This document shows positions 8,828 to 30,823 of a stretch of 47,137 bases of DNA, one piece after another (within the stretch, counting starts at the first letter, position 1; the number at the start of each line of letters is the position of its first letter). Below the pieces are notes generated by a model. The model ran no database searches, had not been told where the DNA came from, and saw nothing but the letters and a program-made list of their open reading frames with translations. This DNA is from Bacteroidales bacterium (GTDB lineage Bacteria; Bacteroidota; Bacteroidia; Bacteroidales; GCA-2748055), in the NCBI GenBank assembly GCA_029210725.1, contig JARGFM010000027.1, positions 1-47,137 of the forward strand. The letters are read 5' to 3'. A program made the translations under genes and the position numbers.

Positions 8828-11278
8828 ATGTTCCTGCAATTCGTTAAGTCTGGGATGAGATTAGTTACTCCGCTCATATTCCTGTTCTTTTCAGTCTTGA
8901 GCCTCTTCGGACAGAAGACTCATCTGAATGCAATACTGGCGCCCGCGGACGAACCGGTCACCTATCTCCTCTTTACTGAGGATGGAGCCGATATCATTGT
9001 CCAGGAGGCATTTAAGGCACGAAGTGCGGATCTGGCCCGGGATCATCCGTATCTGACGGTTTCCGGCGATTTTACGGGCGATGGAGTGGATGAGTTGGCC
9101 GTATTCAACGATCTGGAATATACTCCCAATATGAATCCGGCCTTTACCTGCTCGGTGGTATCGGTTTATCGCTCCACCGGCGAACAGTTCCTTCCGGCGG
9201 GTAGCTGGTTTTCATGCCCGGACTCTCAGCTGGATTTTGAATTTGTCTCTTTTTCGGTGGCAGGGGACTTTACCGGGGATGGCTTATGTGATATCGCTCT
9301 GTTCTATAATGATCCGTCCCTGGATCAGTCGACCATTTACCTGCTGGAATCTACAGGGTCAGGTTTTGCAGAGGCCCGGGCCTGGTACCGTGTGGCGAGG
9401 AACGAATTTAATTTCACGGCTCTGAAATTTGCCTGTCCGGGCGATTTCAACGGTAACGGAAAGCCCGGTATTCTGGTCTTCTACAACTATTTTGGAACGG
9501 AACCCGGCACCAGGCAGTCTCTGTTTCTGTTTGAGGCCGAAGCAGATACGCTGGCACTGCTCCCGCGTGCCTATGATGCAACAAAGGCATCCTATGATTT
9601 TTCCCGTATGAAGTTTGCACTGGCGGGGGATTATAACCTGGATGGTTTTTCTGATATTGCGGTGTTGCACGAGGATCCCGCCGACCTGGATCTTTTCATC
9701 ACTGTCTTTGAAGGATCGGCAGACGGCCTGCTTACCCCTGTGGACTATGTCTCTTATGCGGACATTGAACCCTGGCTCATGCAGGTCTTGCATGCAGCGG
9801 GAGGAGAATTTGCGGGAGACAGCGCGACGGATCTGGCTCTTTTCTATGATAATCCGGGAACCGGCAGCCAGGAAATCATAGTGCTCGAGAGTGATCATGG
9901 CACTTTTAAAGCCCCTGAAACAGTCTTCAGTGCTGATCCGGGAACCCTGGATTTGGAAGCCATTACGACGGTTCGAAGCGGAGCCTTTGTGCACCACCCC
10001 TTGGTTCGGGCGACCACGTGGAAGGATGATATGACGGGAGCCCTGTCCTTTACCTTTGATGATGGGTACAGGGGCGCTTTTGAATATGGTGGGGCGGAAC
10101 TGGAAGCGGCCGGACTAAAAGGGATTTTTTACATTTTTACCGATACAAGCGCCGTTTATAACGGAGAGCTGGCCAGTACCAGCCTGGTCCGCGAATACAG
10201 GGACAAGGGCCATGAGATCGCTTCCCATACTTCTAATCATGCGAATCTGGGCTTTCTGACAGAATCGGGGGATGTGGACTCCCTGAACCAGGTTCTGTCG
10301 GCATCGGTGGCACTGCTTAATGAACGTTTTGATCAGCATACCCTGACCATGTCCATTCCATTCGGGAGTTTTCGTTATGAAACCCTGGATTACATTTCTC
10401 AGTACTTTTATTCGGCCCGAAGCAGTCAGTTTGGATTCAACCTGGCCACTCCCTATGACTTTTATGCCCTTAGATCCTGGCCGGTACTGAGTACCACCTC
10501 CCCCGCTTATGTGGAAAGCCTTCTCTCGACGGCCGAAGGATATGGCACCTATCTCCCGCTCATGTACCACGATATGCTGGATGAGCCCTTTGATGAAGCT
10601 TCGCTTATTTACACCTACAGCCGGGAGCTGTTTTTTCAAACCATTCAGGATGCACTCAGCAGGAATCTCTGGATCGAAACCCATGAACGGATTTATAAGT
10701 ACATCAGGGAACGAAATGCTCTGAAGATCTCCCGGCTTGAAACTGGAAATATGGAGGGGCCATCGGGCCACTTCTCTTTTGAGGCGGATGACGGACTGAT
10801 CGATTCGATCTTCGACGTAGAGCTTACTTTAAAGATTTCTTTACCCGGTAGTTGGATGGAAGATACGGTTAGCGTGGGTTCTGAGGGTGAATACTCTTAT
10901 TTCAGGATCCGGGAGGATGAACAGGGCAGTTTTTTTCTGTACGACTGGCTACCCGTTAGCGGAACAAGCCTTGAGGTTTTTGAGGGCAGACTTCCCGGAA
11001 CGGCCGTGGCAGAACGTATTGCCAGGCCCTTGGAAATAAGCCTGCGTGCGGCCCCCAACCCCTTTCTGCACGAAACACGGATTACTCTTTCGGGAGAAGC
11101 AGGCAGGGATACCTGTCTGATCATCCGGGATATTCAGGGCCGGAGCATTCGGGAGATCAGGGAGTTTAACGGCACTTCCATACAGATAAGCCGTGAAAGC
11201 CTGTCCCCCGGGATGTATTTGATTCAATTGGTCGATCCTGGAAAAAAGGGTGCATTTCTGAAAATCATAGCCGAATAA
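8828..11278 (+). CDS. T9SS-exported VCBS-repeat polysaccharide deacetylase
   Basis: An 816-residue secreted protein. The signal peptide is at residues 10-29; ATG 8855 (residue 10) is an equally good start. Residues about 70-380 form a beta-propeller of five VCBS/FG-GAP-type repeats, seen as GDFTGDGVDELAVF, GDFTGDGLCDIALFYN, GDFNGNGKPGILVFYN, GDYNLDGFSDIAVLHE and GEFAGDSATDLALFYD. A NodB-like polysaccharide deacetylase domain follows, with LSFTFDDGY (metal aspartate) and EIASHTSNHANLG (H-x3-H). The last 75 residues have the PNPF start and the SPGMYLIQL end of a type A T9SS sorting domain. It should be delivered to the cell surface or medium to remove acetyl groups from a glycan; the target is unknown. 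Confidence 0.9.
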   Translation: MFLQFVKSGMRLVTPLIFLFFSVLSLFGQKTHLNAILAPADEPVTYLLFTEDGADIIVQEAFKARSADLARDHPYLTVSGDFTGDGVDELAVFNDLEYTPNMNPAFTCSVVSVYRSTGEQFLPAGSWFSCPDSQLDFEFVSFSVAGDFTGDGLCDIALFYNDPSLDQSTIYLLESTGSGFAEARAWYRVARNEFNFTALKFACPGDFNGNGKPGILVFYNYFGTEPGTRQSLFLFEAEADTLALLPRAYDATKASYDFSRMKFALAGDYNLDGFSDIAVLHEDPADLDLFITVFEGSADGLLTPVDYVSYADIEPWLMQVLHAAGGEFAGDSATDLALFYDNPGTGSQEIIVLESDHGTFKAPETVFSADPGTLDLEAITTVRSGAFVHHPLVRATTWKDDMTGALSFTFDDGYRGAFEYGGAELEAAGLKGIFYIFTDTSAVYNGELASTSLVREYRDKGHEIASHTSNHANLGFLTESGDVDSLNQVLSASVALLNERFDQHTLTMSIPFGSFRYETLDYISQYFYSARSSQFGFNLATPYDFYALRSWPVLSTTSPAYVESLLSTAEGYGTYLPLMYHDMLDEPFDEASLIYTYSRELFFQTIQDALSRNLWIETHERIYKYIRERNALKISRLETGNMEGPSGHFSFEADDGLIDSIFDVELTLKISLPGSWMEDTVSVGSEGEYSYFRIREDEQGSFFLYDWLPVSGTSLEVFEGRLPGTAVAERIARPLEISLRAAPNPFLHETRITLSGEAGRDTCLIIRDIQGRSIREIREFNGTSIQISRESLSPGMYLIQLVDPGKKGAFLKIIAE

Positions 11279-11301
11279 AATTTTAAACGAAAGTTAATGC
11301 G

Positions 11302-11315
11302 CTTTCATATGAAAG
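11302..11315. promoter_or_regulatory. Palindromic operator candidate for the glycyl radical operon
   Basis: CTTTCATATGAAAG is a perfect 14-bp palindrome just upstream of the TATCTTTG promoter box at 11320. The half-site GAAAGTTA at its right edge (11311-11318) also occurs at 11289-11296 in the same orientation, 22 bp away, about two helical turns. This layout fits a repressor covering the promoter. The natural candidate is the DeoR-family protein encoded as the last gene of the same operon; that link is inference. Confidence 0.55.
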
Positions 11316-11319
11316 TTAT

Positions 11320-11327
11320 TATCTTTG
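11320..11327 (+). promoter_or_regulatory. Bacteroidota-type promoter -7 box of the glycyl radical operon
   Basis: TATCTTTG matches the TAnnTTTG consensus of the primary sigma factor of this phylum and lies 24 nt before the ATG of the activase. No clear -33 TTG is visible at the expected distance; the space is taken by the CTTTCATATGAAAG palindrome. Confidence 0.6.
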
Positions 11328-11351
11328 TTCTGAAAACAAACGGACTGCACC

Positions 11352-12242
11352 ATGATCTTCAATATCCAGCGTTTTTCGACCCACGATGGAGATGGGATCC
11401 GCACGCTGATTTTCTATAAGGGATGTCCCCTGAAGTGTCAGTGGTGCAGCAATCCGGAGAGCCAGTCCTTTGGCCGGAGTATTCTCTATGATTTAAGAAG
11501 TTGCAAGCATTTTGGAGATTGTGTCAACACCATGCCCGACGCCATATCTCACTCTGCTGGCGGGGTTTTACATATTCAGCGAGAGCGCATCTCCGATGCG
11601 CAGCAGTTAAAGGACCTCTGTGTTGCAAAGGCACTTACAATATCCGGGGAGCCCCTCGGAGTGGACGAAATAATGGCGGAGATTGATAAGGATCTTCCCT
11701 TCTACCACCGCGATGGCGGTGTTACCCTTACGGGTGGCGAGCCGCTGGCCCAGGACGCCGAGCTGGTTCTTCTGCTGCAGGTCCTGCATGAACGGCGAAT
11801 TAACACCAACATGGAAACATCGCTGCATGTGAGCTGGGAATTGGCTGAAAGGTGCATCGGACTGATAGATGCCTTCCTGGTGGACCTGAAACATACGGAT
11901 CCGGGGAAGTTTAGGGCATTTACCGGGGGAGATGCCAGACTGGTTATGGAAAATCTGGAGAAGCTGGCCTGTTTCGGGGCTCATGTAGTGGTAAGGATAC
12001 CGGTGATCCCCGGCTTTAATCATTCGACGGAGGAAATCCGGTCCATGGTAGACTTCCTCCGGAACATCAGGGGGATTAAGGAAATCCACTTCCTTCCCTA
12101 CCATACCTTTGGCGTGGAGAAGTATAAGATGCTGGGAATGGAATATCTGTATAACAACCACAAACAGGTCGGCGAAGAAGAGCTGATGCCTTATGTGCAC
12201 TATGCAGAATCAAAAGGTTTTATAACAAAAATCGGAGGATAG
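11352..12242 (+). CDS. Glycyl-radical enzyme activating enzyme (radical SAM)
   Basis: A 296-residue radical SAM activase that should install the glycyl radical on the enzyme encoded immediately downstream. The 4Fe-4S motif is C25-PLK-C29-QW-C32, within KGCPLKCQWCSNPES, which is typical of the PflA/GRE-activase family; DGDGIRTLIFYKGC precedes it and VTLTGGEPLAQ follows. Between them GRE activases usually carry a ferredoxin-like insert with two CxxCxxCxxxCP clusters. Here the insert keeps length and hydrophobic pattern, but only three cysteines remain (CKHFGDC and LCVAKAL), so the auxiliary clusters appear lost. The stop is separated from the next ATG by one base, and a GGAGG ribosome binding site sits inside its last codons. 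High confidence in family. Confidence 0.93.
   Translation: MIFNIQRFSTHDGDGIRTLIFYKGCPLKCQWCSNPESQSFGRSILYDLRSCKHFGDCVNTMPDAISHSAGGVLHIQRERISDAQQLKDLCVAKALTISGEPLGVDEIMAEIDKDLPFYHRDGGVTLTGGEPLAQDAELVLLLQVLHERRINTNMETSLHVSWELAERCIGLIDAFLVDLKHTDPGKFRAFTGGDARLVMENLEKLACFGAHVVVRIPVIPGFNHSTEEIRSMVDFLRNIRGIKEIHFLPYHTFGVEKYKMLGMEYLYNNHKQVGEEELMPYVHYAESKGFITKIGG
12234..12238 (+). promoter_or_regulatory. Ribosome binding site of the glycyl radical enzyme gene
   Basis: GGAGG lies 5 nt before ATG 12244, inside the final glycine codons of the activase. Strong Shine-Dalgarno sites are uncommon in Bacteroidota, so this one fixes the start and suggests high-level, coupled translation of the enzyme. Confidence 0.6.
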
Positions 12243-12243
12243 G

Positions 12244-14664
12244 ATGATAGCTGCTGAACAGACCAAAGAGATCTCGGAACGGATTGCTTATCTGAGGGAG
12301 AAAGTGATGAGTACCAAACCCACCGTTTGCACCGAAAGGGCCCGTTTTTATACCGAGGTGTACCGGGAGAATGAAGATCAGCCGGTGATTATTAAACGGG
12401 CTCTGGCCCTGCAGAAGACCCTGGAGAAGATGACTGTTTTTATCGAAAAGGGCGAGCTGATTGTGGGAAACCATTCTTCCTGTCGCCGCGCCGCCCCTAT
12501 CTTTCCCGAATATGCTGTGGACTGGCTTCCGGAGGAGATGGACGATCTGGATAAGCGTCCCGGAGATGCTTTTTTCATTACTGCAGAACATAAAGAAGAA
12601 TTGAAGGAGATAGCCAGCTGGTGGAAGGGCAAGGTGCTCTGGGACCGGGGCCGCGCCCTGATGAGCCAGGAACTGCGCGATCTTCAGGATTCGGCTATTA
12701 TTAAAGCTACCGGGAACCTCACTTCCGGAGACGCTCATATCGCCGTGGATTTTCAGAAAATCCTGGAGGTGGGATTAAGAGGTTATTTCAGGGAGATTGA
12801 ACGGTACCATAAGCAGGTGGACCGCTCCGACCGGGAAGGGATCCGGAAAGACAAGTTCTATACGGCTTTGACTATTGGTCTGGAGTCCTTTCAGTCCTTT
12901 ATCAGGCGCTACCGCGATCTGGCCGTTTATCTGAGCAAAGAGAGCGACGACCCTCAACGAACCAGTGAATTACAGCTTATTGCTGATAATTGCCATGCTA
13001 TTGCGGAAAGACCCCCGGAAGATTTTTACCAGGCGCTTCAGCTGGTTTACTTTGTGCAGCTTATCCTGCAGATTGAAAGCAACGGACATTCGGTTTCCCT
13101 GGGAAGGCTCGACCAGTACCTCTACCCCTTCTATCAAAAGGATCTGGCAGCAGGAAAAATTTCTCAGGAACGAGCTATAGAATTACTTGAGAATACCTGG
13201 ATTAAATTGCTTTCTATTAATAAGATAAGGCCCTGGTCTCATACCCGCTTTTCGGCCGGTGGACCCCTCTATCAGAATGTGACCATCGGGGGACAGACCC
13301 CGGATGGGAAAGATGCTGTCAATGAGCTGAGTTTCCTGATTCTTGAATCGGTGGGAAATATGAAACTGACCCAGCCCAATTTGTCGGTACGCTTTCACAA
13401 AGGGATCAGCGAGGAATTTATGATGGCCTGCATCCGGGTGATTGAAAAAGGCTTTGGAATGCCCTCCTTTAACAACGATGAAGTGGTCATCCCGGAACTG
13501 ATCCATCTGGGTGTGGAGCAGGAAGATGCCTTCAACTACTCGGCCATTGGTTGCATCGAGATTGCGGTGCCCGGAAAATGGGGCTACCGCTGCACCGGCA
13601 TGAGTTTTCTGAACCTGATGAGGGTCTTTCTGGCCACTCTTTATGACGGTTATGACAGCCCGTCGGGACAAACTTTTCACAAGGGAACCGGGAACTTTAC
13701 GGACTTTGATTCCTACGAGGAGCTGTTTAAGGCCTGGCAGCAGCAGATCCAATATTATACACGGAAAACCGTGGAGATTGATACGGCTGTTGATATCGCC
13801 CTGGAGGAGCATGTGCCTGATATTCTCTGCTCGGCCTTTGTGGATAGCTGTATTTCCCGGGGAAAGACCATTAAAGAGGGAGGTTCCAAATATGACTTTA
13901 TATCCGGATTGCAGGTGGGCATTGCGAACCTTGGAAATGCCCTGGCTGCCATTAAAAAGCTGGTCTACGAGGAGAAAAAGATAGGTCCGGAGGAACTGCT
14001 TGAGGCCCTGGAAGGTAATTTTGAAGGCAAGGAGGGAGAGAAAATCAGGCAGCTCTTACTCAACTATGCTCCCAAGTATGGGAACGATGACGACTATGTG
14101 GACCTGCTTTTGAGGGATGCCTATATGGAATTTATCAGGGAACTGGATAAGTACCATACGACCCGTTATAACAGGGGGCCCATCGGTTGCAGGTACTATG
14201 CAGGAACCTCCAGCATCTCTGCCAATGTGCCCAGCGGGGCGGTTGTTCCCGCCACTCCCGACGGTCGCCTGGCCCATACCCCGGTGGCCGAAGGAAGCTC
14301 TCCTTCTTCCGGGACCGACCTGCTGGGGCCCACCGCGGTTTTTAAATCGGTTTCCAAGCTGCCCACGGAAAAGATCATGGGCGGGGTGCTGCTGAACCAG
14401 AAGCTCTCCCCTGCTGCCATTCAGAAGGAAAGGGATAAACATAAACTGATTTCCATCATACGCACTTTTTTTTCCGATCTGAAGGGCTGGCACGTACAGT
14501 ATAACATTGTGTCCAGGGAGACCCTGCTGGCTGCCAGAAAGGATCCGGAAAAATACCGCGACCTGGTGGTCCGGATTGCCGGTTATTCCGCATTTTTTAC
14601 TACTTTATCTCCCGATACACAGGATGATATAATTGCACGTACCGAACATACTTTAAATTTCTGA
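12244..14664 (+). CDS. Glycyl radical enzyme, pyruvate formate-lyase/dehydratase superfamily, substrate unknown
   Basis: An 806-residue glycyl radical enzyme. The catalytic thiyl cysteine and base are in GCIE (Cys437, Glu439), and the radical glycine is Gly780 in VRIAGYSAFF, 26 residues from the C-terminus. The GC-x-E form excludes true pyruvate formate-lyase (Cys-Cys) and places it with the eliminase/lyase branch that includes glycerol, propanediol and hydroxyproline dehydratases and choline lyase. GDAHIAVDF near residue 159 resembles the glycerol dehydratase GH...DY substrate segment. YQNVTIGGQTPDGKDAVNEL and QPNLSVRFHK are family hallmarks. It is co-transcribed with its activase, a ROK kinase and a DeoR regulator, pointing to a polyol or sugar-like substrate. 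No microcompartment shell genes are nearby. The specific reaction cannot be assigned. Confidence 0.94.
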   Translation: MIAAEQTKEISERIAYLREKVMSTKPTVCTERARFYTEVYRENEDQPVIIKRALALQKTLEKMTVFIEKGELIVGNHSSCRRAAPIFPEYAVDWLPEEMDDLDKRPGDAFFITAEHKEELKEIASWWKGKVLWDRGRALMSQELRDLQDSAIIKATGNLTSGDAHIAVDFQKILEVGLRGYFREIERYHKQVDRSDREGIRKDKFYTALTIGLESFQSFIRRYRDLAVYLSKESDDPQRTSELQLIADNCHAIAERPPEDFYQALQLVYFVQLILQIESNGHSVSLGRLDQYLYPFYQKDLAAGKISQERAIELLENTWIKLLSINKIRPWSHTRFSAGGPLYQNVTIGGQTPDGKDAVNELSFLILESVGNMKLTQPNLSVRFHKGISEEFMMACIRVIEKGFGMPSFNNDEVVIPELIHLGVEQEDAFNYSAIGCIEIAVPGKWGYRCTGMSFLNLMRVFLATLYDGYDSPSGQTFHKGTGNFTDFDSYEELFKAWQQQIQYYTRKTVEIDTAVDIALEEHVPDILCSAFVDSCISRGKTIKEGGSKYDFISGLQVGIANLGNALAAIKKLVYEEKKIGPEELLEALEGNFEGKEGEKIRQLLLNYAPKYGNDDDYVDLLLRDAYMEFIRELDKYHTTRYNRGPIGCRYYAGTSSISANVPSGAVVPATPDGRLAHTPVAEGSSPSSGTDLLGPTAVFKSVSKLPTEKIMGGVLLNQKLSPAAIQKERDKHKLISIIRTFFSDLKGWHVQYNIVSRETLLAARKDPEKYRDLVVRIAGYSAFFTTLSPDTQDDIIARTEHTLNF

Positions 14665-14668
14665 ACCC

Positions 14669-15628
14669 ATGCCTGGAGTACTTTGCGGAGTCGACATCGG
14701 GGGAACCAAATGTTCCATCGCCCTCATTGAAGAAAAGGGAAGAATCCTGGATAAAATATACACCTGCGCCCATGTGGAACAGGACGAAGAGGGAATGGTA
14801 AGTCTGATAGCGGGTCAGGTGAAGGAAATTATGAAGCGTAATCATCTGAATCAGAATGATCTGCTAGCCATCGGAGTGGGCTGCGCGGGACATATCCGCT
14901 ATAGCGACGGGGTGATCATCACCACCTCCAATCTGAAGGGATTTAAAAATTACCCCTTGCGCGCAAAGCTGCAGGCCCATTTCGATATCCCGGTGATTCT
15001 GGATAACGATGCCAATGCACAGGCTTTCGGGGAGTATAAATTCGGAGCGGGACAGGGATACAACGATATGATCTTTGTGACCATCAGTACGGGTATCGGG
15101 GCAGGAATTGTGATCAACGGGAAGCTGTACAGGGGAAATACCGGCACGGCCGGCGAATTCGGCCATACCATTGTGGATCCCGGCAGTGAGCTGGTATGCA
15201 GTTGCGGAAACCGGGGCTGTGTCATGGCCCTGGCCTGTGGAATGGCTCTTCCCTATATGTTTGAAAAAAAGCTGAAAGAAGGCAAAGTGACTTACCTGAA
15301 GATGCCTCCCAACTTTAAACTCTCAAAAATAAACGGGCAGACCCTGAAAAAGGGGCTGGACATGGATGACCCCCTCTCCAGGGAAGTGATTTCGGACAGT
15401 GCCTACTACGTGGGCATCGGACTCTACAACCTGTTCCAGGTCCTCAATCCGTCCCTGATTGTACTGGGCGGGGGACTGACCAACTGGGGGCAGTTCTACC
15501 TGGATAAGATTAAGGAGACTTTCTATGAACTGGCCCGCGATATGATCTTTGATCCCATTGAGATCGTACTTTCGGATATTGTCGGCGATGCCGGAGTGAT
15601 TGGTGCCGCTGCTCTAAGCCTGGAATAA
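14669..15628 (+). CDS. ROK-family sugar kinase with altered GCxE motif
   Basis: A 319-residue ROK (repressor, ORF, kinase) protein without a DNA-binding domain, hence a kinase. The phosphate-binding DIGGTK starts at residue 9 and the catalytic base is Asp114 in LDNDANAQAFGE. The sugar/zinc signature reads AGEFGHTIVD then CSCGNRGCVMALACG, keeping the glutamate-histidine pair and the zinc ligands His-Cys-Cys-Cys. The glutamate that normally follows two residues after the last cysteine (GCxE) is Met186 here. In ROK kinases such as human N-acetylmannosamine kinase this glutamate contacts the sugar, so substrate choice is probably changed. It starts 4 bp after the glycyl radical enzyme and ends 1 bp before the DeoR gene. 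It likely phosphorylates the substrate or product of that enzyme. Confidence 0.9.
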   Translation: MPGVLCGVDIGGTKCSIALIEEKGRILDKIYTCAHVEQDEEGMVSLIAGQVKEIMKRNHLNQNDLLAIGVGCAGHIRYSDGVIITTSNLKGFKNYPLRAKLQAHFDIPVILDNDANAQAFGEYKFGAGQGYNDMIFVTISTGIGAGIVINGKLYRGNTGTAGEFGHTIVDPGSELVCSCGNRGCVMALACGMALPYMFEKKLKEGKVTYLKMPPNFKLSKINGQTLKKGLDMDDPLSREVISDSAYYVGIGLYNLFQVLNPSLIVLGGGLTNWGQFYLDKIKETFYELARDMIFDPIEIVLSDIVGDAGVIGAAALSLE

Positions 15629-15629
15629 A

Positions 15630-16376
15630 ATGCTGAATGAAAGACAGAACAGAATTCTGAAGATCCTGGGATTAAACAATCAGACTTCCGTCAGTGAGCT
15701 CTCGCGACAGCTGGAGGTATCTTCGGTGACCATCCGGCAGGATCTGAACTTCCTGGAGGCCGAAGGCCTGTTAAAACGGGTGCATGGGGGCGCGGTACTG
15801 AAGGATGGAGAAAATCTGGATAACCGTCTGGCTAAGAATTATGAAAAAAAACTCCGGATTGCCAGGAAACTTGCTACGATGGTGCATGAAGGGGAAAGCA
15901 TACTGATTGAATCGGGATCTGCCAATGTGCTGTTCGCCCGGGAACTGGTTAAGATCAGGAAGGTCACCATCATGACCACCAATTTGTACATAGCCCGGCA
16001 ATTCAGAACAAACAGCCAGGCCAATGTGGTGATCCTGGGTGGCATCTACCAGCCGGAAAGCGAAACCCTGGTGGGAAAGCTGACCAGGTCGTGTATCGAC
16101 CAGCTGAATATCCGGAAGGCCTTTATCGGGATAGACGGGTACACGACCCGGAATGGCTTTACCCTGCGGGATATGTTCAGGGCTGAGATCTCCAGTCACA
16201 TCATCCGGAAAGCAGAGGATGTGTTTGTAGTATCCGATTCCAGTAAATTTGGAGCAACAGGCCTTACCAACATCTGTCGCCTGAAGGATATCCACCACAT
16301 TGCCACAAACCCGGACCTGGATGCGGTCTATGTGGATGAATTCCGGGATGCCGGGATCGATCTGATCCTGGCCTGA
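15630..16376 (+). CDS. DeoR/GlpR-family transcriptional regulator
   Basis: A 248-residue regulator. The N-terminal winged helix shows the DeoR signature: ERQNRILKILGLNNQTSVSEL, then VSSVTIRQDLNFLEAEGLLKRVHGGA. The C-terminal sugar-phosphate sensor domain has VILGGIYQPESETLVG, FIGIDGYTTRNGFT and VVSDSSKFG. Proteins of this family usually repress sugar operons and are released by a phosphorylated sugar. As the last gene of a four-gene operon, 1 bp after the ROK kinase, it probably represses its own operon, using the palindrome at 11302-11315, and responds to the phosphorylated compound made by the kinase. Family certain; ligand and site inferred. Confidence 0.93.
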   Translation: MLNERQNRILKILGLNNQTSVSELSRQLEVSSVTIRQDLNFLEAEGLLKRVHGGAVLKDGENLDNRLAKNYEKKLRIARKLATMVHEGESILIESGSANVLFARELVKIRKVTIMTTNLYIARQFRTNSQANVVILGGIYQPESETLVGKLTRSCIDQLNIRKAFIGIDGYTTRNGFTLRDMFRAEISSHIIRKAEDVFVVSDSSKFGATGLTNICRLKDIHHIATNPDLDAVYVDEFRDAGIDLILA

Positions 16377-16394: not shown

Positions 16395-17528
16395 CTATAC
16401 TCTCAGGAAAATTTTCTTTTTGTATAAAAATAGAAGCAGGGCCCATTGGATCATCAGTACACCGGTGGTGATAAACACCGCCCCCCATTGCTCATTGATA
16501 TGAACGGAGGTCCAGTTCAGAAAAAAGCGGCTGATGTCGTAAAAATCAATAATCCGGTGTCCCATGTATATGGTGATCGAGTTCATTCCGAACACCCTGA
16601 AGAAAAGCGTCCAATTCTTTGATCCTTTCACATCTATCACAAAATAGAAGAGTGCCAGCAACAGGGCACTGACACCGCCAGCCTTCATCACATAGGTGGC
16701 GGTCCACATTTTCTTGATAATGGGATAAACAGGACTCAGAGCCTGGGCGATCACGATCAGTCCCACACCGGCCAGGGCAATATAGAGGGCTTTCCGGGCC
16801 GGTGCCGCCTTGGAGCTCCTGAGTATATGGCCCGAGAGCGTTCCCATCAGGGTGATGGAGACCGCTGAAACGATACATAGGACCCCTTCCGGATCAAATA
16901 CCTCATCATTCAGCCGGCCCGGAATCAAAAGCTGATCCAGCCATGCGTTGAGGGTGGTGGCGGGCTCAAAGGTTCCGGCTCCGTAACCCGGCACCGGCAC
17001 CAATAACTGCAAAACAGCAATACCTGCAAGGATGCCCACCATCCAGTAGGCAGGACCTTTAATGCTTTTGGAATAGAGACTGATCAGTGCCGCGAAGAAG
17101 TATCCGAATCCAATCTGTGAAAGCACGCTCACATACCGGAGGTTCGTAAAGCCTCTGCTTAAGGCTCCATTGTAAAGGATTCCCAGTAAAACCAATGCAA
17201 GCAGGCGCACCGATATTTTCCGCAATAATTTGGATCTGGCTATCCCCTTTTCCACTTTTGAATTAATGGCATAGGGGATGGCCACTCCGCTGATAAACAT
17301 AAAAAGCGGAAAAATCAGATCGTAGAACCGGAAGCCTTCCCACTGAACGTGGTGTTGCTGAGTGGCAAGCGCTTCCATCCATCCCCACCCGGTTAGCTCG
17401 GCCAGGGCGATAATGATTCCTCCAATTCCCACGAGCATGGCCATATCAAGGCCCCGCAGGGTATCCAGGGATAGCAGTCTTTCTTTAGTCTCCGTCCGAA
17501 GAGTCTGTGTTGTTTGTTTTGCTGGCAT
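16395..17528 (-). CDS. Heparan-alpha-glucosaminide N-acetyltransferase-like membrane protein (DUF5009/NagX type)
   Basis: A polytopic membrane protein of 377 residues (about ten helices) of the NagX/HGSNAT family. The N-terminal hallmark RLLSLDTLRGLDMAMLVGIGG precedes the first helix, and FRFYDLIFPLFMFISGVAIPY follows. The frame extends upstream to a GTG at 17585, but ATG 17528 directly precedes a family-like N-terminus and is preferred. Family members in Bacteroidota often sit in polysaccharide loci and are predicted to transfer acetyl groups from cytoplasmic acetyl-CoA to amino sugars on the periplasmic side. It is convergent with the DeoR gene (18 bp apart). Confidence 0.87.
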   Translation of the reverse strand: MPAKQTTQTLRTETKERLLSLDTLRGLDMAMLVGIGGIIIALAELTGWGWMEALATQQHHVQWEGFRFYDLIFPLFMFISGVAIPYAINSKVEKGIARSKLLRKISVRLLALVLLGILYNGALSRGFTNLRYVSVLSQIGFGYFFAALISLYSKSIKGPAYWMVGILAGIAVLQLLVPVPGYGAGTFEPATTLNAWLDQLLIPGRLNDEVFDPEGVLCIVSAVSITLMGTLSGHILRSSKAAPARKALYIALAGVGLIVIAQALSPVYPIIKKMWTATYVMKAGGVSALLLALFYFVIDVKGSKNWTLFFRVFGMNSITIYMGHRIIDFYDISRFFLNWTSVHINEQWGAVFITTGVLMIQWALLLFLYKKKIFLRV

Positions 17529-17589
17529 GTTGTTTCGTTTAGTGCTTCTAAAGTAGCTAAAAGTTTTTTTGATGTACCACCTCACCGGC

Positions 17590-24441: not shown

Positions 24442-26235
24442 TCATTGACGGTCTGAAGTGAGGATTAATTCCATATATGCGGCAAGGTGGTTCTCATAAA
24501 GCTCTCTGGGGGTGCACTGATGCAGCTTACAAAGGGAGGCTGCATAACCGACTGCCGCACCCATCTGTCCCGTTGTCCTCATAACCCTTGGTCCGCCCAA
24601 ACCTATATGACTGCAGCTGAAGCAGCGGCCTGCCATAAACAGGTTCCCGATATTCTTTGAATAAAGCGATCTGTAGGGAATCTGGTAAGGCCGGGCCGGG
24701 TAGTACATGGCTTCCGAGAGAAAATCAGGCTTGCTTTCGTCCAGCTTGCTCTGAGGATAATGTACATCCACCTCCCGGACTTCGTGCACCACCGCATCCG
24801 GAAAGCTCCTGGATTCACGCATATCGTTAAAGGTATAGAGATAGTCACCCACCAGGCGCCGCGACTCCCTTTTACCAAGCAAATAAGAGACCCATTCCAG
24901 CTTCAGGGAATCGTTCCCGGCTTTTTGCTTTTCGTTGTAAAATGAACCGAAAATGGCCTTCAGCATATGATCCCTGATTTGTTCGGCATGGTCTGTCTGG
25001 TGCCAGCGCTCACTGATAAGCTCCCAGTTCCAGGTTCCTTCACGGGCCGAATAGGAGCCCGAAACCTCCATGGCCCAGGGTACTTCCGGAAATTCACAGG
25101 CGGTATCTGCGTTCATGGTTCTCCAGAGCAATGAAGCTCCCATCACCTGGTGATCCCCTCTGACCGGGCTCCACAATTCTCCGTGCTGCTCCCAGGCTTC
25201 TCCGTACAGGGAATCTGGTTCCCGGCCGTAATTATACTCGGCTCCTGCCCAGTAACCGATCCATCCATCACCGGTACAATCCACAAAATAAGGAGCTTCA
25301 AAGCGGAGGGCCTCACTGGTGGAAGTATGCCTGGCATCCACCGAGCTAATTAGCTGTTTTTCCGTATTGGCCTGATAGGCCCTGAAATTCAGAAACAGGC
25401 TGATATTGGAATAAGATTCCACATGTTGATGCCGTTTCTTCTCATCTGCCAGGGCTTCCGGTGATCCATTGGGGTAGTGTTCCGTATCAAGCATTTTAAG
25501 AATTCTACTGAAATGTCCATAGATTCCCAGAGTATGAACCCTGATCTCGCTGCTGGCATTGCCTCCCAGAACCGGCCGGTCGTGGATAAGGGCCACCTTC
25601 AATCCCTGTTCTGCGGCTGCAATGGATGCTGCACAACCGGCAAGGCCCCCTCCCACCACCACCAGGTCAAAACTCCTGGTCTCCTCCGGTTTATCCACAT
25701 ATCCGGCAAAACGGTTTCGCATATCTTCGAGATATTCCTGCTGGTTGGTAGGGGTCCGGTATTTATTACTGATGTATATGGCATCACAACGACCGTTAAA
25801 TCCGGTAAGATCCTCCAGCCTGACTGTAAGCTCCCCGGCCTTCAGTTTGACTTTGCCGGCATAATTCCATCCCCATCCCCTGTAGCTGCCCATGGTATGG
25901 GGCAGTTTGACTTCATTCAGCCATATATTAAATTGTCCGGGTGCTTCCCAGGGTCCGGAAGCCCAGTCTGTGGTGCGGGCCCATACATGATACTTCCCCC
26001 CTGAGGAGAGTTCCATGCTTGTAGAGGCATCCTCCACCGCTTTCCCCAGGCCATGAGCCATCAGATAGGGCGATCCCATCTGCTCCACAAACTGAGGATC
26101 TACCACCCAGCCACCTTTGTGGTCAAAGCTTTCACATTCCACAAATACCTCCTTATGGCAAGCACACAACAGCAGCAATAAGGCTGGCACAAAGATCCAC
26201 CGGACAGCGTTTTTATTCCTGAAGTACCTGTCCAT
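24442..26235 (-). CDS. FAD-dependent oxidoreductase lipoprotein with N-terminal beta-sandwich
   Basis: A 597-residue protein with a lipoprotein signal (LLLLLCAC, Cys26). Residues about 30-160 look like a carbohydrate-binding-type beta-sandwich (GKYHVWARTTDW, FNIWLNEVKLPHTMG, RCDAIYISN). The FAD domain follows: DLVVVGGGLAGCAASIAAAEQG places GGGLAG at 195-200, and PVLGGNASSEIRVHTLG fits the FAD_oxidored (PF12831) type. The C-terminal LFMAGRCFSCSHIGLGGPRVMRTTGQMG is the second FAD-binding stretch. It probably oxidises a sugar or sugar acid outside the cytoplasm. It overlaps the upstream oxidoreductase gene by 23 nt, so the two are translationally coupled. Confidence 0.88.
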   Translation of the reverse strand: MDRYFRNKNAVRWIFVPALLLLLCACHKEVFVECESFDHKGGWVVDPQFVEQMGSPYLMAHGLGKAVEDASTSMELSSGGKYHVWARTTDWASGPWEAPGQFNIWLNEVKLPHTMGSYRGWGWNYAGKVKLKAGELTVRLEDLTGFNGRCDAIYISNKYRTPTNQQEYLEDMRNRFAGYVDKPEETRSFDLVVVGGGLAGCAASIAAAEQGLKVALIHDRPVLGGNASSEIRVHTLGIYGHFSRILKMLDTEHYPNGSPEALADEKKRHQHVESYSNISLFLNFRAYQANTEKQLISSVDARHTSTSEALRFEAPYFVDCTGDGWIGYWAGAEYNYGREPDSLYGEAWEQHGELWSPVRGDHQVMGASLLWRTMNADTACEFPEVPWAMEVSGSYSAREGTWNWELISERWHQTDHAEQIRDHMLKAIFGSFYNEKQKAGNDSLKLEWVSYLLGKRESRRLVGDYLYTFNDMRESRSFPDAVVHEVREVDVHYPQSKLDESKPDFLSEAMYYPARPYQIPYRSLYSKNIGNLFMAGRCFSCSHIGLGGPRVMRTTGQMGAAVGYAASLCKLHQCTPRELYENHLAAYMELILTSDRQ

Positions 26236-27883
26236 CCTCTAGAAGTTGTTGTTTAAGTTCTTCATACTGTATATCATGTAAGTTGCTTTTCGCATCAATA
26301 GCAAGTACAGCCAGGGTGGCTGCACTCTGCCCCAGGATCATAAAAACCGGTTCCATGCGGATGGACCCATAGGCTATATGGGAGCTGGAGAGGCAGACCG
26401 GCACCAGCAGGTTGGAGCATTCTGCACTGGAGGGCAGGAGCGCGCGCTTATCAATCTGATAGGGATCGCCTGGATGAACCCCGATATCGCCCTCGTTCTG
26501 CACATAACCGTCCGGTTTGATATAGCGTTGAATGTTATGGGAATCCATGGTATAGGAACCCATACCCACCGGCTGTTCCACAGGGGATCTGCCCAGCACC
26601 TCATGTTCTGTCATCACAAAACCGCTCACCATCCTTCGGGCCTCACGCACATAAATCTGATGGGGCCAGTGACCGTTGTCGGTAAATTCATCTTTTGAGT
26701 AGCCCCACTGACTCATCTTCTTCCGAATATCTTCAGGGACTGCCGGGTCGCTGGCAAGGAACCAAAGCAGACCCTTCTGATAGCTGGTATGCTCATTTAT
26801 AATCTCCCTTCTTCTGTCGTAAGAGGCCTCCGGATAATCATAATTCATGCCGATATTATCGCTGCTGAAAGGACCATGATTATTGACATCGGTTTTATGG
26901 TTGGGAATGGGATCAAATTTAGAAAATACCTCCCGCCATCCCGAGTCAAACACTCTTCGGAGCAATTCGTATTGCGTGGAGTCATAGTCCTGCGGCCGGC
27001 TGATGGCCAGCCTGTTCTCCGGGTGGTCGGTCAGACACAACCTGAAACAGTAAGCCTGAACACGATGGTCTCCCGAGCCATATTCGCCCGGATCATCCGT
27101 GGATATCCTGGGTAATACACCACTGGAGGGATCTCCCGGGATTACATAAGGACTGATATCGCTTTTAAAATGGTGCCCATGGTGCAAAACCCCTGTCTGG
27201 ACTCCGTTCCAGTCTTCCCCATACTGATCGATCGATTCGCGGCCCACGGTATAGCTGACTCCTGAAGCGGCCATCAAATCTCCCTCATAGGTGGCATCAA
27301 TAAATACCTTCCCTTTAAAACGCTTGCCATCCAGTGTTCGGATGGAAACAATGACCCCCTCCTGCATTTCAACTCCCTGTTCCCTGTCCAAATAGGATTC
27401 ACGGTATAAAGGAATCTCATTTTCAGCAAGCAGCTGTTCGAATACCTGCTCGGCTGCGTGCGGTTCGAAGATCCACATGGTCCGGTTTTCGCCGTCAATG
27501 GCCACATTTCCCTGTCCCTTGTTTCCATATTCGTTTCTGTCCTGCCATCTCCAGGCCGAATCCTGCTGGTAGTGCAGGTAGAGACGGTGATAGAAATCCC
27601 TGGCAAGTCCCCCGATAACTGCCTTGTTTCCCGTATCAGTCCATCCCAGTCCCGAAGCGCTAAGTCCACCCAGATGCTTATCCGGCGAGACCAGAATCAC
27701 CTTCCTGCCCATTTTGGCTGTCTGAACCGCAGCGATTACAGCAGAAGAATTTCCCCCGTAGATGATTACATCTGCGGAATATTGCTTGTCAACGGCCGAT
27801 TTTTGCCTATTTTCACAGGAGTTGATCAGCAGCAGCAAAAGTAGAACCAAAACGGAGTTTGAAAGAAAGGTTTTGCAGGTCAT
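26213..27883 (-). CDS. FAD-dependent oxidoreductase lipoprotein
   Basis: A 556-residue lipoprotein (LLLINSC, Cys23) of the FAD_oxidored family. The nucleotide-binding loop is ADVIIYGGNSSAVIAAVQTAKMG at about residues 37-59, with GGNSSA in place of GxGxxG, a form common in this family. HLGGLSASGLGWTDTGNKAVIGG and VFIDATYEGDLMAASG are further hallmarks. The C-terminus has CLSSSHIAYGSIRMEPVFMILGQSAAT. With its 3'-overlapping partner it makes a two-gene unit. Divergent from it, 129 bp away, is a GH2 glycosidase, so the locus likely handles a glycan-derived substrate; the exact reaction is unknown. Confidence 0.88.
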   Translation of the reverse strand: MTCKTFLSNSVLVLLLLLLINSCENRQKSAVDKQYSADVIIYGGNSSAVIAAVQTAKMGRKVILVSPDKHLGGLSASGLGWTDTGNKAVIGGLARDFYHRLYLHYQQDSAWRWQDRNEYGNKGQGNVAIDGENRTMWIFEPHAAEQVFEQLLAENEIPLYRESYLDREQGVEMQEGVIVSIRTLDGKRFKGKVFIDATYEGDLMAASGVSYTVGRESIDQYGEDWNGVQTGVLHHGHHFKSDISPYVIPGDPSSGVLPRISTDDPGEYGSGDHRVQAYCFRLCLTDHPENRLAISRPQDYDSTQYELLRRVFDSGWREVFSKFDPIPNHKTDVNNHGPFSSDNIGMNYDYPEASYDRRREIINEHTSYQKGLLWFLASDPAVPEDIRKKMSQWGYSKDEFTDNGHWPHQIYVREARRMVSGFVMTEHEVLGRSPVEQPVGMGSYTMDSHNIQRYIKPDGYVQNEGDIGVHPGDPYQIDKRALLPSSAECSNLLVPVCLSSSHIAYGSIRMEPVFMILGQSAATLAVLAIDAKSNLHDIQYEELKQQLLEDGQVLQE

Positions 27884-28012: not shown

Positions 28013-30823
28013 ATGACTTTACGCTTTTACTTCCTCGTATTTATGATATCAAGCCTGCTGTCTGCGGCCCTGTCTGCTCAGGAGACAGAGGTGGTTTATC
28101 TTTCCGGAACCGGGTTTGACCGGACCGCAGAGTGGGATTTTTACTGTACTGACGGGATGAACAGTAAAGCCTGGACCACTATAGAGGTTCCCTCCTGCTG
28201 GGAGCAACAGGGCTTCGGTGAGTATAACTACGGCCATGTTCCTTTTGAAGACAGGCTGAAGGAAGAAGGGCGCTACCGTTACTTTTTTGAAGCAGACAGA
28301 AGCTGGAAGGGAAAGCGGCTGGACCTGGTATTTGAGGGGGTGATGACCGATGCCCGTGTTCTGGTGAACGGTAAGCAGGCCGGGGAGGTTCATCAGGGTG
28401 CATTTTACCGTTTCAGTTATGATATCTCCCGGCTTGTGAGCTATGGCAGGGAAAACAAGCTGGAAGTTTTTGTAAAGAAATTTTCAGATAATGAGTCTGT
28501 TAACCAGGCCGAACGGAAGGCCGATTACTGGGTATTTGGAGGGATCTTCCGGCCGGTAAAACTGGAAATTAAAGCGGTGAGCCATTTGGAGCGGGTGGCC
28601 ATAGATGCCTCCGCCGATGGTTTTTTCAGGTCAGATATCTACCTGGCGGGAAATCCGGAGGGTGGCAGGGTCCAGGTGGAGATAACAGACCCGGAGGGAG
28701 CCGAAGCAGCACGTTTTATCTCTTCGGCAGCGCCTGGAGCCGGAAAAATCAGGATCTCCGGGAATCTGGATTCGGCGCTTCTTTGGAATCCGGAGGATCC
28801 CCATCTCTACAAAGCCCGGTTCAGCTTATTGGATACAGATGGCAAATTGATCCACCGGATGACAGAAAGTTTTGGTTTTCGAACGGTGGAGCTTCGGGCC
28901 GAGGATGGGATTTATGTGAACGGGGAGCGCATCAAATTCAAAGGAGTTTGCAGGCATAGCTTTCATCCGGATCACGGCCGGACTTCAAGTAAAGCTTTCA
29001 GTATTGAGGTGGTGAACCTGATCAAGGATATGAATATGAACGCAGTGCGCATGTCACACTACCCGCCGGACGAACATTTTCTGGATGTTTGCGATTCTCT
29101 GGGGCTTTTCGTCCTGGATGAGCTGGCAGGCTGGCAGCGTCCATCCTACGATTCGGTGGTGGGACGGAAGCTATTGGGTGAAATGATCGCCAGGGATGTG
29201 AACCATCCCAGTGTGGTGCTGTGGGACAATGCCAATGAAGGAGGATGGAACACAGCCTATGATAAGGATTTCAGGGAGCTGGATATCCAGCAGCGCGGGG
29301 TAATCCACCCCTGGGGCTATCACGATTTGACCAATACGGCCCATTATGTGGACTATAAGTACCTGGCCATGGACCATTTTGCTCCCAGACAGGTTTTTTT
29401 CCCCACGGAGATGATTCATGGTTTGTATGATGGCGGACTGGGAGCAGGCCTGGAGGATTTCTGGCTGCGGATGTGGGAACATCCCCTTAGTGCAGGAGGG
29501 TTTCTTTGGGTGTTTGCCGATGAATCGCTTAAACGGACCGATAGCGGCATGCTGGATTCGGATGGCAACCATGCACCGGATGGTATTCTGGGCCCCTATC
29601 ATGAAAAGGAAGGAAGTTTTTATGCGGTCCGGGAGATCTGGTCGCCGGTCCATGTGGAAAAACGCTATATCACCGAAGAGTTTAACGGGGTATTCCGGAT
29701 TCAGAACCGTTTTCATTTTACCAATCTGGATCAATGCCACTTTCGTTATAGCTGGATGAGAATGCAGGGGCCCGGAAATCCGGGAGTAAAAGAACAGGGA
29801 TCTGATGAATTCGCCGGAGTGATGGATTCTGGGATACCGGTAGCTGATCCCCTGGCACCTGGTCAGAATGGGAAACTGAAAGTGCCCCTGTCTGAAGGCT
29901 GGCAAAACTGTGATGCCTTATACCTGGAGGCCTTCGATCCATTCGGGCGACTGATACATGCCTGGAGCTGGCCCGTTAAAACGCCTGTCCGGACCATGGA
30001 AGAGCTATTGCCTCCAAAGAAGGCTGATTCCATTACCGTTTCTGAGTCGGATGCAACTTTGATCCTGGAATCGGGAACAGTAAGACTGGAGCTCTCCAAA
30101 ACCGATGGATTACTGCTGCAGGTGAATTCGGGCGACTGGCGGATTCCTCTTTCGAAGGGGCCTGTCTTCAGAAGTGATATGCCACCGCTAAGGTCATTTT
30201 CTCATTTTGCCAAAGAGAAAGCACATCATGTTCGGATTGATTTCGGAGCAACTGGAACCCTCGAATGGATTATGCATGCAGGCGGAGTGGTGGATATGAA
30301 GCTGCACTATCAGCCTGAAGGCCCCCGGGTACCCTTTACGGGAGCATCCTTTTCCTACCCGGAACAGGAGGTGCAATCGGTCACTTACCTGGGGAACGGA
30401 CCCTACCGGGTCTGGAAGAACCGGAAAACGGGTGTGGAGTTCAATGTTTGGGAGAAAACGCCCAACAATACCATTATCGGACATTCCGGCTTCGAATATC
30501 CTGAATTCAGGGGATACTATTCAAACCTTTACTGGAGCAGGATTACGGATCCCCGGAACCGACACTTTACCATTTACAGCCATACAAAGGATCTTTACCT
30601 GAGATTGTTTACACCGGAAGAAGCTCCGGATCCGGCAAAGACCACGGTGACACATCCTCCCGGAGACCTCTCCTTTATGCTGGGAATTCCGGCCATTGGA
30701 ACAAAATTTAAAGAGGCAAAAGATCTTGGACCACAGTCAGATAGTTATTGTTACTCGAAGCTTAGAGTGATGGATGGTGCTCTTCATATAGAACTCACCT
30801 TTGACTTCAGGCACGAAGAGTGA
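28013..30823 (+). CDS. Glycoside hydrolase family 2 (beta-galactosidase-like)
   Basis: A 936-residue secreted GH2 enzyme. Signal peptide at residues 1-22 (ends SAALSAQ). The N-terminal sugar-binding jelly roll (IEVPSCWEQQGFGEYNYGH, VFEGVMTDARVLVNGKQAGEH-like strand), an immunoglobulin-like domain and the TIM barrel follow. In the barrel, FKGVCRHSFHPDHGR and MSHYPPDEHFLDVCDSLGL are standard. The acid/base is Glu409 in DNANEGG (usually GNE), and the nucleophile is probably Glu466 in FPTEMIHGLYDGG. The variation around both suggests a substrate other than lactose. A large C-terminal beta domain follows. The sulfatase gene starts about 31 bp later, so both probably act on a sulfated glycan. Confidence 0.9.
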   Translation: MTLRFYFLVFMISSLLSAALSAQETEVVYLSGTGFDRTAEWDFYCTDGMNSKAWTTIEVPSCWEQQGFGEYNYGHVPFEDRLKEEGRYRYFFEADRSWKGKRLDLVFEGVMTDARVLVNGKQAGEVHQGAFYRFSYDISRLVSYGRENKLEVFVKKFSDNESVNQAERKADYWVFGGIFRPVKLEIKAVSHLERVAIDASADGFFRSDIYLAGNPEGGRVQVEITDPEGAEAARFISSAAPGAGKIRISGNLDSALLWNPEDPHLYKARFSLLDTDGKLIHRMTESFGFRTVELRAEDGIYVNGERIKFKGVCRHSFHPDHGRTSSKAFSIEVVNLIKDMNMNAVRMSHYPPDEHFLDVCDSLGLFVLDELAGWQRPSYDSVVGRKLLGEMIARDVNHPSVVLWDNANEGGWNTAYDKDFRELDIQQRGVIHPWGYHDLTNTAHYVDYKYLAMDHFAPRQVFFPTEMIHGLYDGGLGAGLEDFWLRMWEHPLSAGGFLWVFADESLKRTDSGMLDSDGNHAPDGILGPYHEKEGSFYAVREIWSPVHVEKRYITEEFNGVFRIQNRFHFTNLDQCHFRYSWMRMQGPGNPGVKEQGSDEFAGVMDSGIPVADPLAPGQNGKLKVPLSEGWQNCDALYLEAFDPFGRLIHAWSWPVKTPVRTMEELLPPKKADSITVSESDATLILESGTVRLELSKTDGLLLQVNSGDWRIPLSKGPVFRSDMPPLRSFSHFAKEKAHHVRIDFGATGTLEWIMHAGGVVDMKLHYQPEGPRVPFTGASFSYPEQEVQSVTYLGNGPYRVWKNRKTGVEFNVWEKTPNNTIIGHSGFEYPEFRGYYSNLYWSRITDPRNRHFTIYSHTKDLYLRLFTPEEAPDPAKTTVTHPPGDLSFMLGIPAIGTKFKEAKDLGPQSDSYCYSKLRVMDGALHIELTFDFRHEE

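What the first reader, a model, noticed from the sequence alone, without database searches (positions are those of the whole stretch)
11302..16376. Four-gene glycyl radical operon with ROK kinase and DeoR regulator, substrate unassigned
Activase, glycyl radical enzyme, sugar-type kinase and regulator are separated by 1, 4 and 1 bp. The enzyme has GCIE and a C-terminal radical glycine, so it is a lyase/dehydratase-type enzyme and not pyruvate formate-lyase. I know of no characterised pathway that pairs this enzyme class with a ROK kinase and DeoR regulator, and no microcompartment genes accompany it. This is the best candidate for a new anaerobic catabolic system, possibly for a sugar, anhydrosugar or polyol.
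Basis: partly seen in the sequence, partly recalled or inferred. Interest (0 to 1): 0.78.

Follow-up and report, generated by a model that had tools for sequence, protein, structure and literature searches.

The report
Anhydroglucitol operon with its own kinase
A four-gene set in a Bacteroidota bacterium very probably lets it phosphorylate and break open the anhydrosugar 1,5-anhydroglucitol without oxygen, with its own kinase where E. coli uses a phosphotransferase system; the ring-opening step is already known, the kinase pairing looks new, and the next enzyme of the known pathway was not found.

Summary
In detail: activase, glycyl radical enzyme (GRE), ROK kinase and DeoR regulator lie in a row, 1, 4 and 1 bp apart. 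"Substrate unassigned" does not hold. The GRE is YbiW-like (1009 bits; next class 641); its second Foldseek hit, 56% identical, is PDB 8id7, "YbiW in complex with 1,5-anhydroglucitol-6-phosphate". It most likely opens AG6P to 1-deoxyfructose-6-phosphate, a step known from E. coli (second-hand).

Apparently new: the known pathway phosphorylates by PTS; this branch carries a ROK kinase with Met where NagK has the acid that holds the sugar 1-OH, which anhydroglucitol lacks. Of 33 ROK hits in the GRE loci, 30 have this Met. Of 80 GRE loci, 25 carry the Met kinase, 38 an FsaA homolog, none both. A DNA pattern for the Met motif hit 13 distinct genomes; all 13 hold the GRE.

Open: 11 same-genus GRE genomes gave no FSA match above 75 bits and no PTS enzyme I over cut-off, so the next step is unknown. 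New variant of a known pathway; no activity shown.

The parts
11288..11315 (.). Operator-like element CGAAAG-N8-CTTTCATATGAAAG before the operon, a guess at the DeoR-family binding site
   Evidence: Exact palindrome 11302-11315; the window holds 2 matches within 2 mismatches (the other at 32114-32127), 0.32 expected. Nearly the same element before the activase in L005, L087, L088, looser in L006, L007, L012, L091, L094; weak or not evident in L008-L011 and L013-L015. Binding is inferred.
11352..12242 (+). Radical-SAM activase of the glycyl radical enzyme (CPLKCQWC)
   Evidence: TIGR02494 317.4 bits, cut-off 174.35; motif read
12244..14664 (+). YbiW-type glycyl radical enzyme, predicted AG6P ring-opening C-O lyase; Cys437 codon 13552-13554, Gly780 codon 14581-14583
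   Evidence: phmmer 1009-1019 bits to YbiW-type chains, next 640.6; Foldseek rank 2 = 8id7, 56% identity, TM 0.96; 452 of 803 aligned residues identical to E. coli YbiW
14669..15628 (+). ROK-family sugar kinase, predicted ATP-dependent 1,5-anhydroglucitol 6-kinase
   Evidence: PF00480 237 bits; nearest solved folds are ROK glucokinases 3vgk and 2qm1, 29-32% identity; AlphaFold pLDDT 93.0
15197..15226 (+). Motif CSCGNRGCVM of the kinase; Met186 (codon 15224-15226) stands for the acid of CxCGxxGCx(E/D)
   Evidence: role of the replaced acid from PMC10031466 placed by the alignment
15630..16376 (+). DeoR-family regulator, predicted repressor of the operon answering to a sugar phosphate
   Evidence: DeoRC 147.9 and HTH_DeoR 55.7 bits, over cut-off; function inferred

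Best explanation
The operon is a non-PTS branch of anaerobic 1,5-anhydroglucitol (AG) breakdown. AG enters unphosphorylated through an unidentified transporter; the ROK kinase phosphorylates its 6-OH with ATP to AG6P, with Met186 in place of the acid that grips an anomeric hydroxyl, so that AG is preferred over glucose. The activase puts a glycyl radical on Gly780 of the YbiW-type GRE, and the Cys437 thiyl radical opens the AG6P ring by C-O cleavage to 1-deoxyfructose-6-phosphate. The DeoR protein represses the operon through the upstream element and is released by a sugar phosphate. Shown by computation: closeness to YbiW, conservation of the gene set, the Met substitution, no strong FSA and no PTS enzyme I match over cut-off in this genus. 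Inferred: substrate, reaction, import, repression. Unknown: the enzyme that uses 1-deoxyfructose-6-phosphate here.
For: GRE: YbiW-type chains 1009-1019 bits against 640.6 (glycerol dehydratase) and 514.9 (PflD); Foldseek rank 1 is 6xs4 and rank 2 YbiW with AG6P, 56% identity; PflD with AM6P is 34%. Between 17 kinase-linked and 11 FsaA-linked GREs only positions 91 and 456 differ consistently (at least 85% and 80% of the rows), 7 at a 70% threshold. PMC12441222 (passages): YbiW cleaves AG6P to 1-deoxyfructose-6-P. Kinase: of 33 ROK hits in the GRE loci 30 have Met at this place, among them 19 of 19 in the alignment I selected, down to 31% identity with the window kinase. In NagK the residue here (D187) engages the 1-OH and D187N lowers kcat/KM for GlcNAc from 2.1 to 0.26 (PMC10031466; position checked). 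A DNA pattern for the Met motif: 10 of 100 relatives, 1 of 394 genomes across the phylum (the own genome), 3 of 247 around G505; all 13 distinct genomes hold the GRE. Met kinase in 25 and FsaA in 38 of 80 GRE loci, none both, Fisher 7e-10 without correction for relatedness. PTS enzyme I over cut-off in 0 of 11 same-genus GRE genomes. Sugar-type ABC transporter genes near the kinase and GRE in L013, L015, L044 and, by an ATPase only, L019 (picked by eye).
Against: No activity, ligand or growth data. The next enzyme of the known pathway was not found: best FSA matches in 11 same-genus GRE genomes 74.5 (G012) and 42.3 bits (own), the rest none, and the own transaldolase looks TalB-like. Three of the 33 ROK hits lack the Met: the second ROK of L078 (Glu), one 8 genes off in L080, and one directly after the GRE in L056; the last two lack the zinc motif altogether. 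One paper puts the equivalent Glu187 of E. coli glucokinase near O5/O6 (PMC13133996), and D187 is not conserved in all NagKs. Nine of 11 kinase-type genomes outside Bacteroidota have PTS enzyme I over cut-off, and FsaA-type loci L067 and L054 show ABC transporter genes by eye, so kinase and PTS do not sort cleanly. At a 70% threshold position 649, in the stretch GPIG(C/G), differs between the groups. AG6P contacts were not mapped on coordinates.
Confidence: 0.82

Rival explanations
1. The same pair acts on another anhydrohexitol, above all 1,5-anhydromannitol (AM6P), as PflD does.
For: PflD opens AM6P to the same product (PMC12441222); AM lacks the 1-OH too, so the kinase signature fits equally.
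Against: The GRE is much nearer YbiW (1009 bits, 452 of 803 identical) than PflD (515 bits, 293 of 763); ESNGHS, GKWGYRC and YYAGTSS are shared with YbiW, not PflD. PflD shares 125 and another, distant own GRE 115 of 175 clade-invariant columns.
Confidence: 0.07
2. The kinase is an ordinary glucokinase that happens to sit beside the GRE.
For: Best sequence and fold matches are ROK glucokinases.
Against: Below the ROK glucokinase cut-off (TIGR00744 232.7 against 260.35); Met for the motif acid in 30 of 33 ROK hits of GRE loci; close to this GRE in Bacteroidota, Spirochaetota and Bacillota.
Confidence: 0.06
3. A different GRE reaction on another phosphorylated sugar, unrelated to anhydroglucitol.
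For: No strong FSA match in this genus; a few positions differ between kinase-linked and FsaA-linked GREs.
Against: 56% identity to the AG6P-bound enzyme and only two consistently different positions at the stricter threshold.
Confidence: 0.05

Closest known systems
E. coli YbiW (AG6P glycyl radical enzyme) with activase YbiY and aldolase FsaA
   Same: GRE 56% identical, an activase, predicted reaction
   Different: The E. coli stretch has fsaA divergent beside ybiY-ybiW and no kinase among its 8 features; here a ROK kinase and a DeoR gene, no strong FSA and no PTS enzyme I match over cut-off in the genome
E. coli PflD/PflC with Frw PTS, FsaB and GldA (AM6P pathway)
   Same: GRE plus activase acting on an anhydrohexitol 6-phosphate
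   Different: PTS genes flank pflD-pflC; the GRE is far off in score and tree
ROK glucokinases (3vgk, 2qm1) and NagK
   Same: Fold, DxGxT, catalytic Asp, ExGH, three cysteines of the zinc motif
   Different: Met186 in place of the Glu/Asp that ends CxCGxxGCx(E/D)

Membership tests
YbiW-type AG6P glycyl radical enzyme | Nearest solved chains are YbiW types | tested here: met
YbiW-type AG6P glycyl radical enzyme | Catalytic Cys and Glu (GCIE) and C-terminal radical Gly | tested here: met
   C437, E439, G780 invariant among 34 aligned
YbiW-type AG6P glycyl radical enzyme | Same AG6P-contacting residues as 8id7 | tested here: inconclusive
   Motifs conserved, few group-distinct positions, contacts not mapped on coordinates
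YbiW-type AG6P glycyl radical enzyme | Turnover of AG6P | not testable with these tools
   needs an anaerobic assay
AG pathway of Ma et al. | Phosphorylation by a PTS (PMC12441222) | tested here: not met
   own genome: best PTS enzyme I match 84 bits, partial, against 341.7
AG pathway of Ma et al. | FsaA/FsaB aldolase for 1-deoxyfructose-6-P (recalled) | tested here: not met
   best own match 42.3 bits, in a transaldolase; the FsaA-type genomes searched have 184 bits or more
AG pathway of Ma et al. | Hydroxyacetone reductase such as GldA (recalled) | tested here: inconclusive
   two Fe-ADH proteins in the genome, not examined further
ROK glucokinase | DxGxT, catalytic Asp, ExGH | tested here: met
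   D9, G11, T13, D114, E163, G165, H166 invariant in 19 of 19
ROK glucokinase | CxCGxxGCx(E/D) | tested here: not met
   CSCGNRGCVM
ROK glucokinase | TIGR00744 cut-off | tested here: not met
   232.7 against 260.35
HypD, CutC, sulfopropanediol dehydratase, PflD-type (PRK09983), PFL | NCBIfam equivalog cut-offs | tested here: not met
   577.7/1100, 509.4/1050, 601.8/1000, 607.9/1109, 154.7/994.2; the broad subfamily TIGR01774 is met, 1005.1/678.2
DeoR regulators | HTH_DeoR plus DeoRC domains | tested here: met

The most novel reading that the evidence does not exclude
A second, PTS-free and Fsa-free form of anhydroglucitol fermentation: a dedicated anhydroglucitol 6-kinase, recognisable by Met in place of the anomeric-site acid, feeds the YbiW-type radical enzyme, and an as yet unknown enzyme, not FsaA, disposes of 1-deoxyfructose-6-phosphate in these Bacteroidota.
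Probability: 0.5. Interest if true: 0.66.

Novelty: new variant of a known kind. Interest (0 to 1): 0.52.

Why it matters
It would extend anaerobic anhydroglucitol breakdown to Bacteroidota without a PTS, supply a candidate sequence signature (GCxM) for an anhydroglucitol kinase in a family where substrates are hard to predict, and expose a missing enzyme for 1-deoxyfructose-6-phosphate. The substrate is found in most foods, and its 6-phosphate is the toxic metabolite behind a human neutropenia (start of the abstract and passages of PMC12441222).

Tried and rejected
Rejected: pyruvate formate-lyase, hydroxyproline, choline, sulfopropanediol and glycerol/propanediol enzymes. Rejected as the missing aldolase: the own transaldolase in L004, beside transketolase and ribose-5-phosphate isomerase-like ORFs, with Phe at the place of FsaA Tyr131 and Glu at that of TalB Glu96 (that these residues tell the two apart is recalled). 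Absence of a PTS as the general cause of the kinase: it fits Bacteroidota (0 of 11 same-genus and 0 of 8 further kinase-type genomes over cut-off; G495 appears to be G001 again), not the others (9 of 11 over cut-off). The FSA comparison is weaker than it looks: the 11 FsaA-type genomes were picked because FsaA lies in the locus, so 11 of 11 is by selection and the Fisher value 5e-5 printed is not used; what it shows is that 15 of 19 kinase-type genomes lack a full-length match (judged by matched range; G498, G499, G502, G509 have one), while the curated cut-off is passed by 2 of 19 and 5 of 11. The GRE turned up in 1 of 394 genomes across the phylum (own) at E 1e-200 and in 11 of 18 same-genus and 0 of 82 other relatives at 1e-250, a number of them incomplete; horizontal spread is possible, untested. 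In some searches I had wrongly labelled L053 as FsaA-linked (one search finds neither gene there); repeated without it, positions 91 and 456 differ consistently instead of 91 alone, and the tree needs 4 changes of the kinase label, at least 3 by starred branches (L073 relabelled as FsaA-linked and the second own GRE left out; the first tree gave 3), so a single origin is not shown. Of the 80 loci, L017 and L036 gave no GRE in my ORF list, 17 show neither kinase nor FsaA, and several are cut by contig ends. The scan also gave chance hits in L011, L067 and L069, and by its form cannot see a ROK without the cysteine motif such as L056. Of seven ROK matches in the own genome two fit the expression, so L097 (Glu) is the only own-genome control.
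Full report
What is there. The window is contig 27 of a 3.8 Mb genome, 98.6% complete. At 11352-16376 on the + strand lie genes for a radical-SAM activase, an 806-aa GRE, a 319-aa ROK protein and a 248-aa DeoR-type regulator with gaps of 1, 4 and 1 bp; family scans confirm all four. Neighbours are a protein with polysaccharide deacetylase, FG-GAP and secretion-tail domains (8828-11278) and, on the other strand, a NagX-like membrane protein (16395-17585). In the neighbourhoods printed for relatives I saw no further gene conserved beside the four (by eye).

Identity of the GRE. Against PDB sequences the best three chains are 6xs4 (1019 bits) and two YbiW entries (1009 bits); then glycerol dehydratase 641, a propanediol dehydratase 581, another diol dehydratase 572 and PflD 515 (title of 9rco). 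With an AlphaFold model (pLDDT 89) Foldseek ranks 6xs4 first and 8id7, 'Crystal structure of YbiW in complex with 1,5-anhydroglucitol-6-phosphate', second at 56% identity and TM 0.96; AM6P-bound PflD 8id0 is at 34%. The review PMC12441222 (passages) reports that YbiW and PflD cleave AG6P and AM6P to 1-deoxyfructose-6-phosphate after phosphorylation by a PTS. From memory, Ma et al. (JACS 2024) is the primary paper and names FsaA/FsaB and GldA as the next enzymes; I did not see it.

Two genomic settings. Between 17 kinase-linked and 11 FsaA-linked GREs positions 91 and 456 differ consistently; at a 70% threshold 7 positions do, among them 649 in GPIG(C/G). The segments around ESNGHS, QNVT, GKWGYRC and TSS are alike in most of the rows printed, L078 deviating most. 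In the tree the window enzyme sits in a clade of 10 kinase-linked rows, nine Bacteroidota (window included) and L013 of Bacillota (100/99); it shares a larger group with the proteobacterial YbiW clade (85/98), and the kinase label needs 4 changes.

The kinase. First hits by sequence and fold are ROK glucokinases at about 30% identity, but it is under the ROK glucokinase cut-off. The ROK signature ends in CxCGxxGCx(E/D) (PMC5458393, passages); in human ManNAc kinase Glu588 of that motif is one of five conserved sugar-binding residues (PMC2742894, passages). In P. shigelloides NagK, Asp187 engages the sugar 1-OH and D187N cuts kcat/KM for GlcNAc from 2.1 to 0.26 (PMC10031466, passages); counting along the alignment puts Asp187 in GCID. 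The window kinase reads CSCGNRGCVM. Of 33 ROK hits in the GRE loci 30 have Met there; the others are the second ROK of L078 (Glu), a ROK 8 genes off in L080 and a ROK right after the GRE of L056 (24% identity), the last two without the zinc motif. Controls with Glu: L078 second ROK, L097 of the own genome, E. coli NagK. PMC13133996 (passages) places the equivalent residue of E. coli glucokinase near O5/O6, which disagrees. That Met186 marks a substrate without a 1-OH is therefore an inference.

Association. The DNA pattern for CxCGNxGCxM occurs in 10 of 100 relatives, each GRE-bearing in the same set; the eleventh GRE genome, G009, has its GRE at a contig end. It occurs in 1 of 394 genomes across the phylum, the own genome, also the only GRE hit there, and in 3 of 247 genomes around the Treponema genome G505, which itself was reached through the GRE; all three have the GRE next to the kinase.

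Gaps in the pathway. In 11 same-genus GRE genomes the FSA model gave 42.3 bits (own, a transaldolase), 74.5 bits (G012) and nothing else at E 0.001; the 11 genomes with FsaA beside the GRE that I searched reach 184 bits or more. Of 19 kinase-type genomes 15 lack a full-length match. PTS enzyme I is over cut-off in 0 of 11 same-genus, 0 of 8 further Bacteroidota kinase-type, 9 of 11 other kinase-type and 10 of 11 FsaA-type genomes. Sugar-type ABC genes lie near the kinase and GRE in L013, L044 and L015, and an ABC ATPase in L019, which would fit import of the free sugar; but FsaA-type L067 and L054 show ABC genes too, while L047, L079 and L081 look like PTS permeases, all by eye. Two Fe-ADH proteins exist in the own genome. 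No enzyme for 1-deoxyfructose-6-phosphate was identified.

Regulation. CGAAAG-N8-CTTTCATATGAAAG lies 37-64 bp before the activase ATG and recurs before the activase of some relatives, not of others. Binding of the DeoR protein is inferred.

Judgement. The chemistry of the central enzyme is already known. The operon is a variant in which a distinctive ROK kinase stands where E. coli uses a PTS and in which the known aldolase was not found. Nothing was tested at the bench.

Noticed in passing
L003 (own genome, contig 21, 20908-23274): A second GRE, 34% identical, with GCVE and GYSDYF motifs; its class was not resolved because the family scan failed on my coordinates.
   Followed up: no
window 11352-12242, about residues 45-100 of the activase: The ferredoxin-like insert has three cysteines here and in the 9 Bacteroidota relatives aligned, against six in E. 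coli YbiY, which suggests loss of an auxiliary iron-sulfur cluster.
   Followed up: partly
L007 12462-12833: A 123-aa ORF (four-helix-bundle type by recall) lies between the GRE and ROK genes.
   Followed up: no
L013, L044, L019: Sugar-type ABC transporter genes close to kinase-linked YbiW-type GREs, candidate anhydroglucitol importers (in L019 only an ATPase was seen).
   Followed up: partly
L056 12297-13307: A ROK protein (24% identity, no zinc motif) directly after a YbiW-type GRE, an exception to the Met signature.
   Followed up: no
L054 13096-16196: A second activase and a second, distant GRE (33%) directly after the YbiW-type GRE and FsaA genes.
   Followed up: no
window 24442-27883 (-): Two FAD-dependent oxidoreductase-like genes with overlapping ends; in the rows shown no NCBIfam family is over cut-off.
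   Followed up: no
window 28013-30823: Beta-galactosidase-like enzyme nearest to exo-beta-1,4-galactosidase BT4156, 967.7 bits against a cut-off of 1700.
   Followed up: no
window 16395-17585 (-): NagX/DUF5009-like membrane protein next to the operon, 287.9 bits against a cut-off of 480.
   Followed up: no
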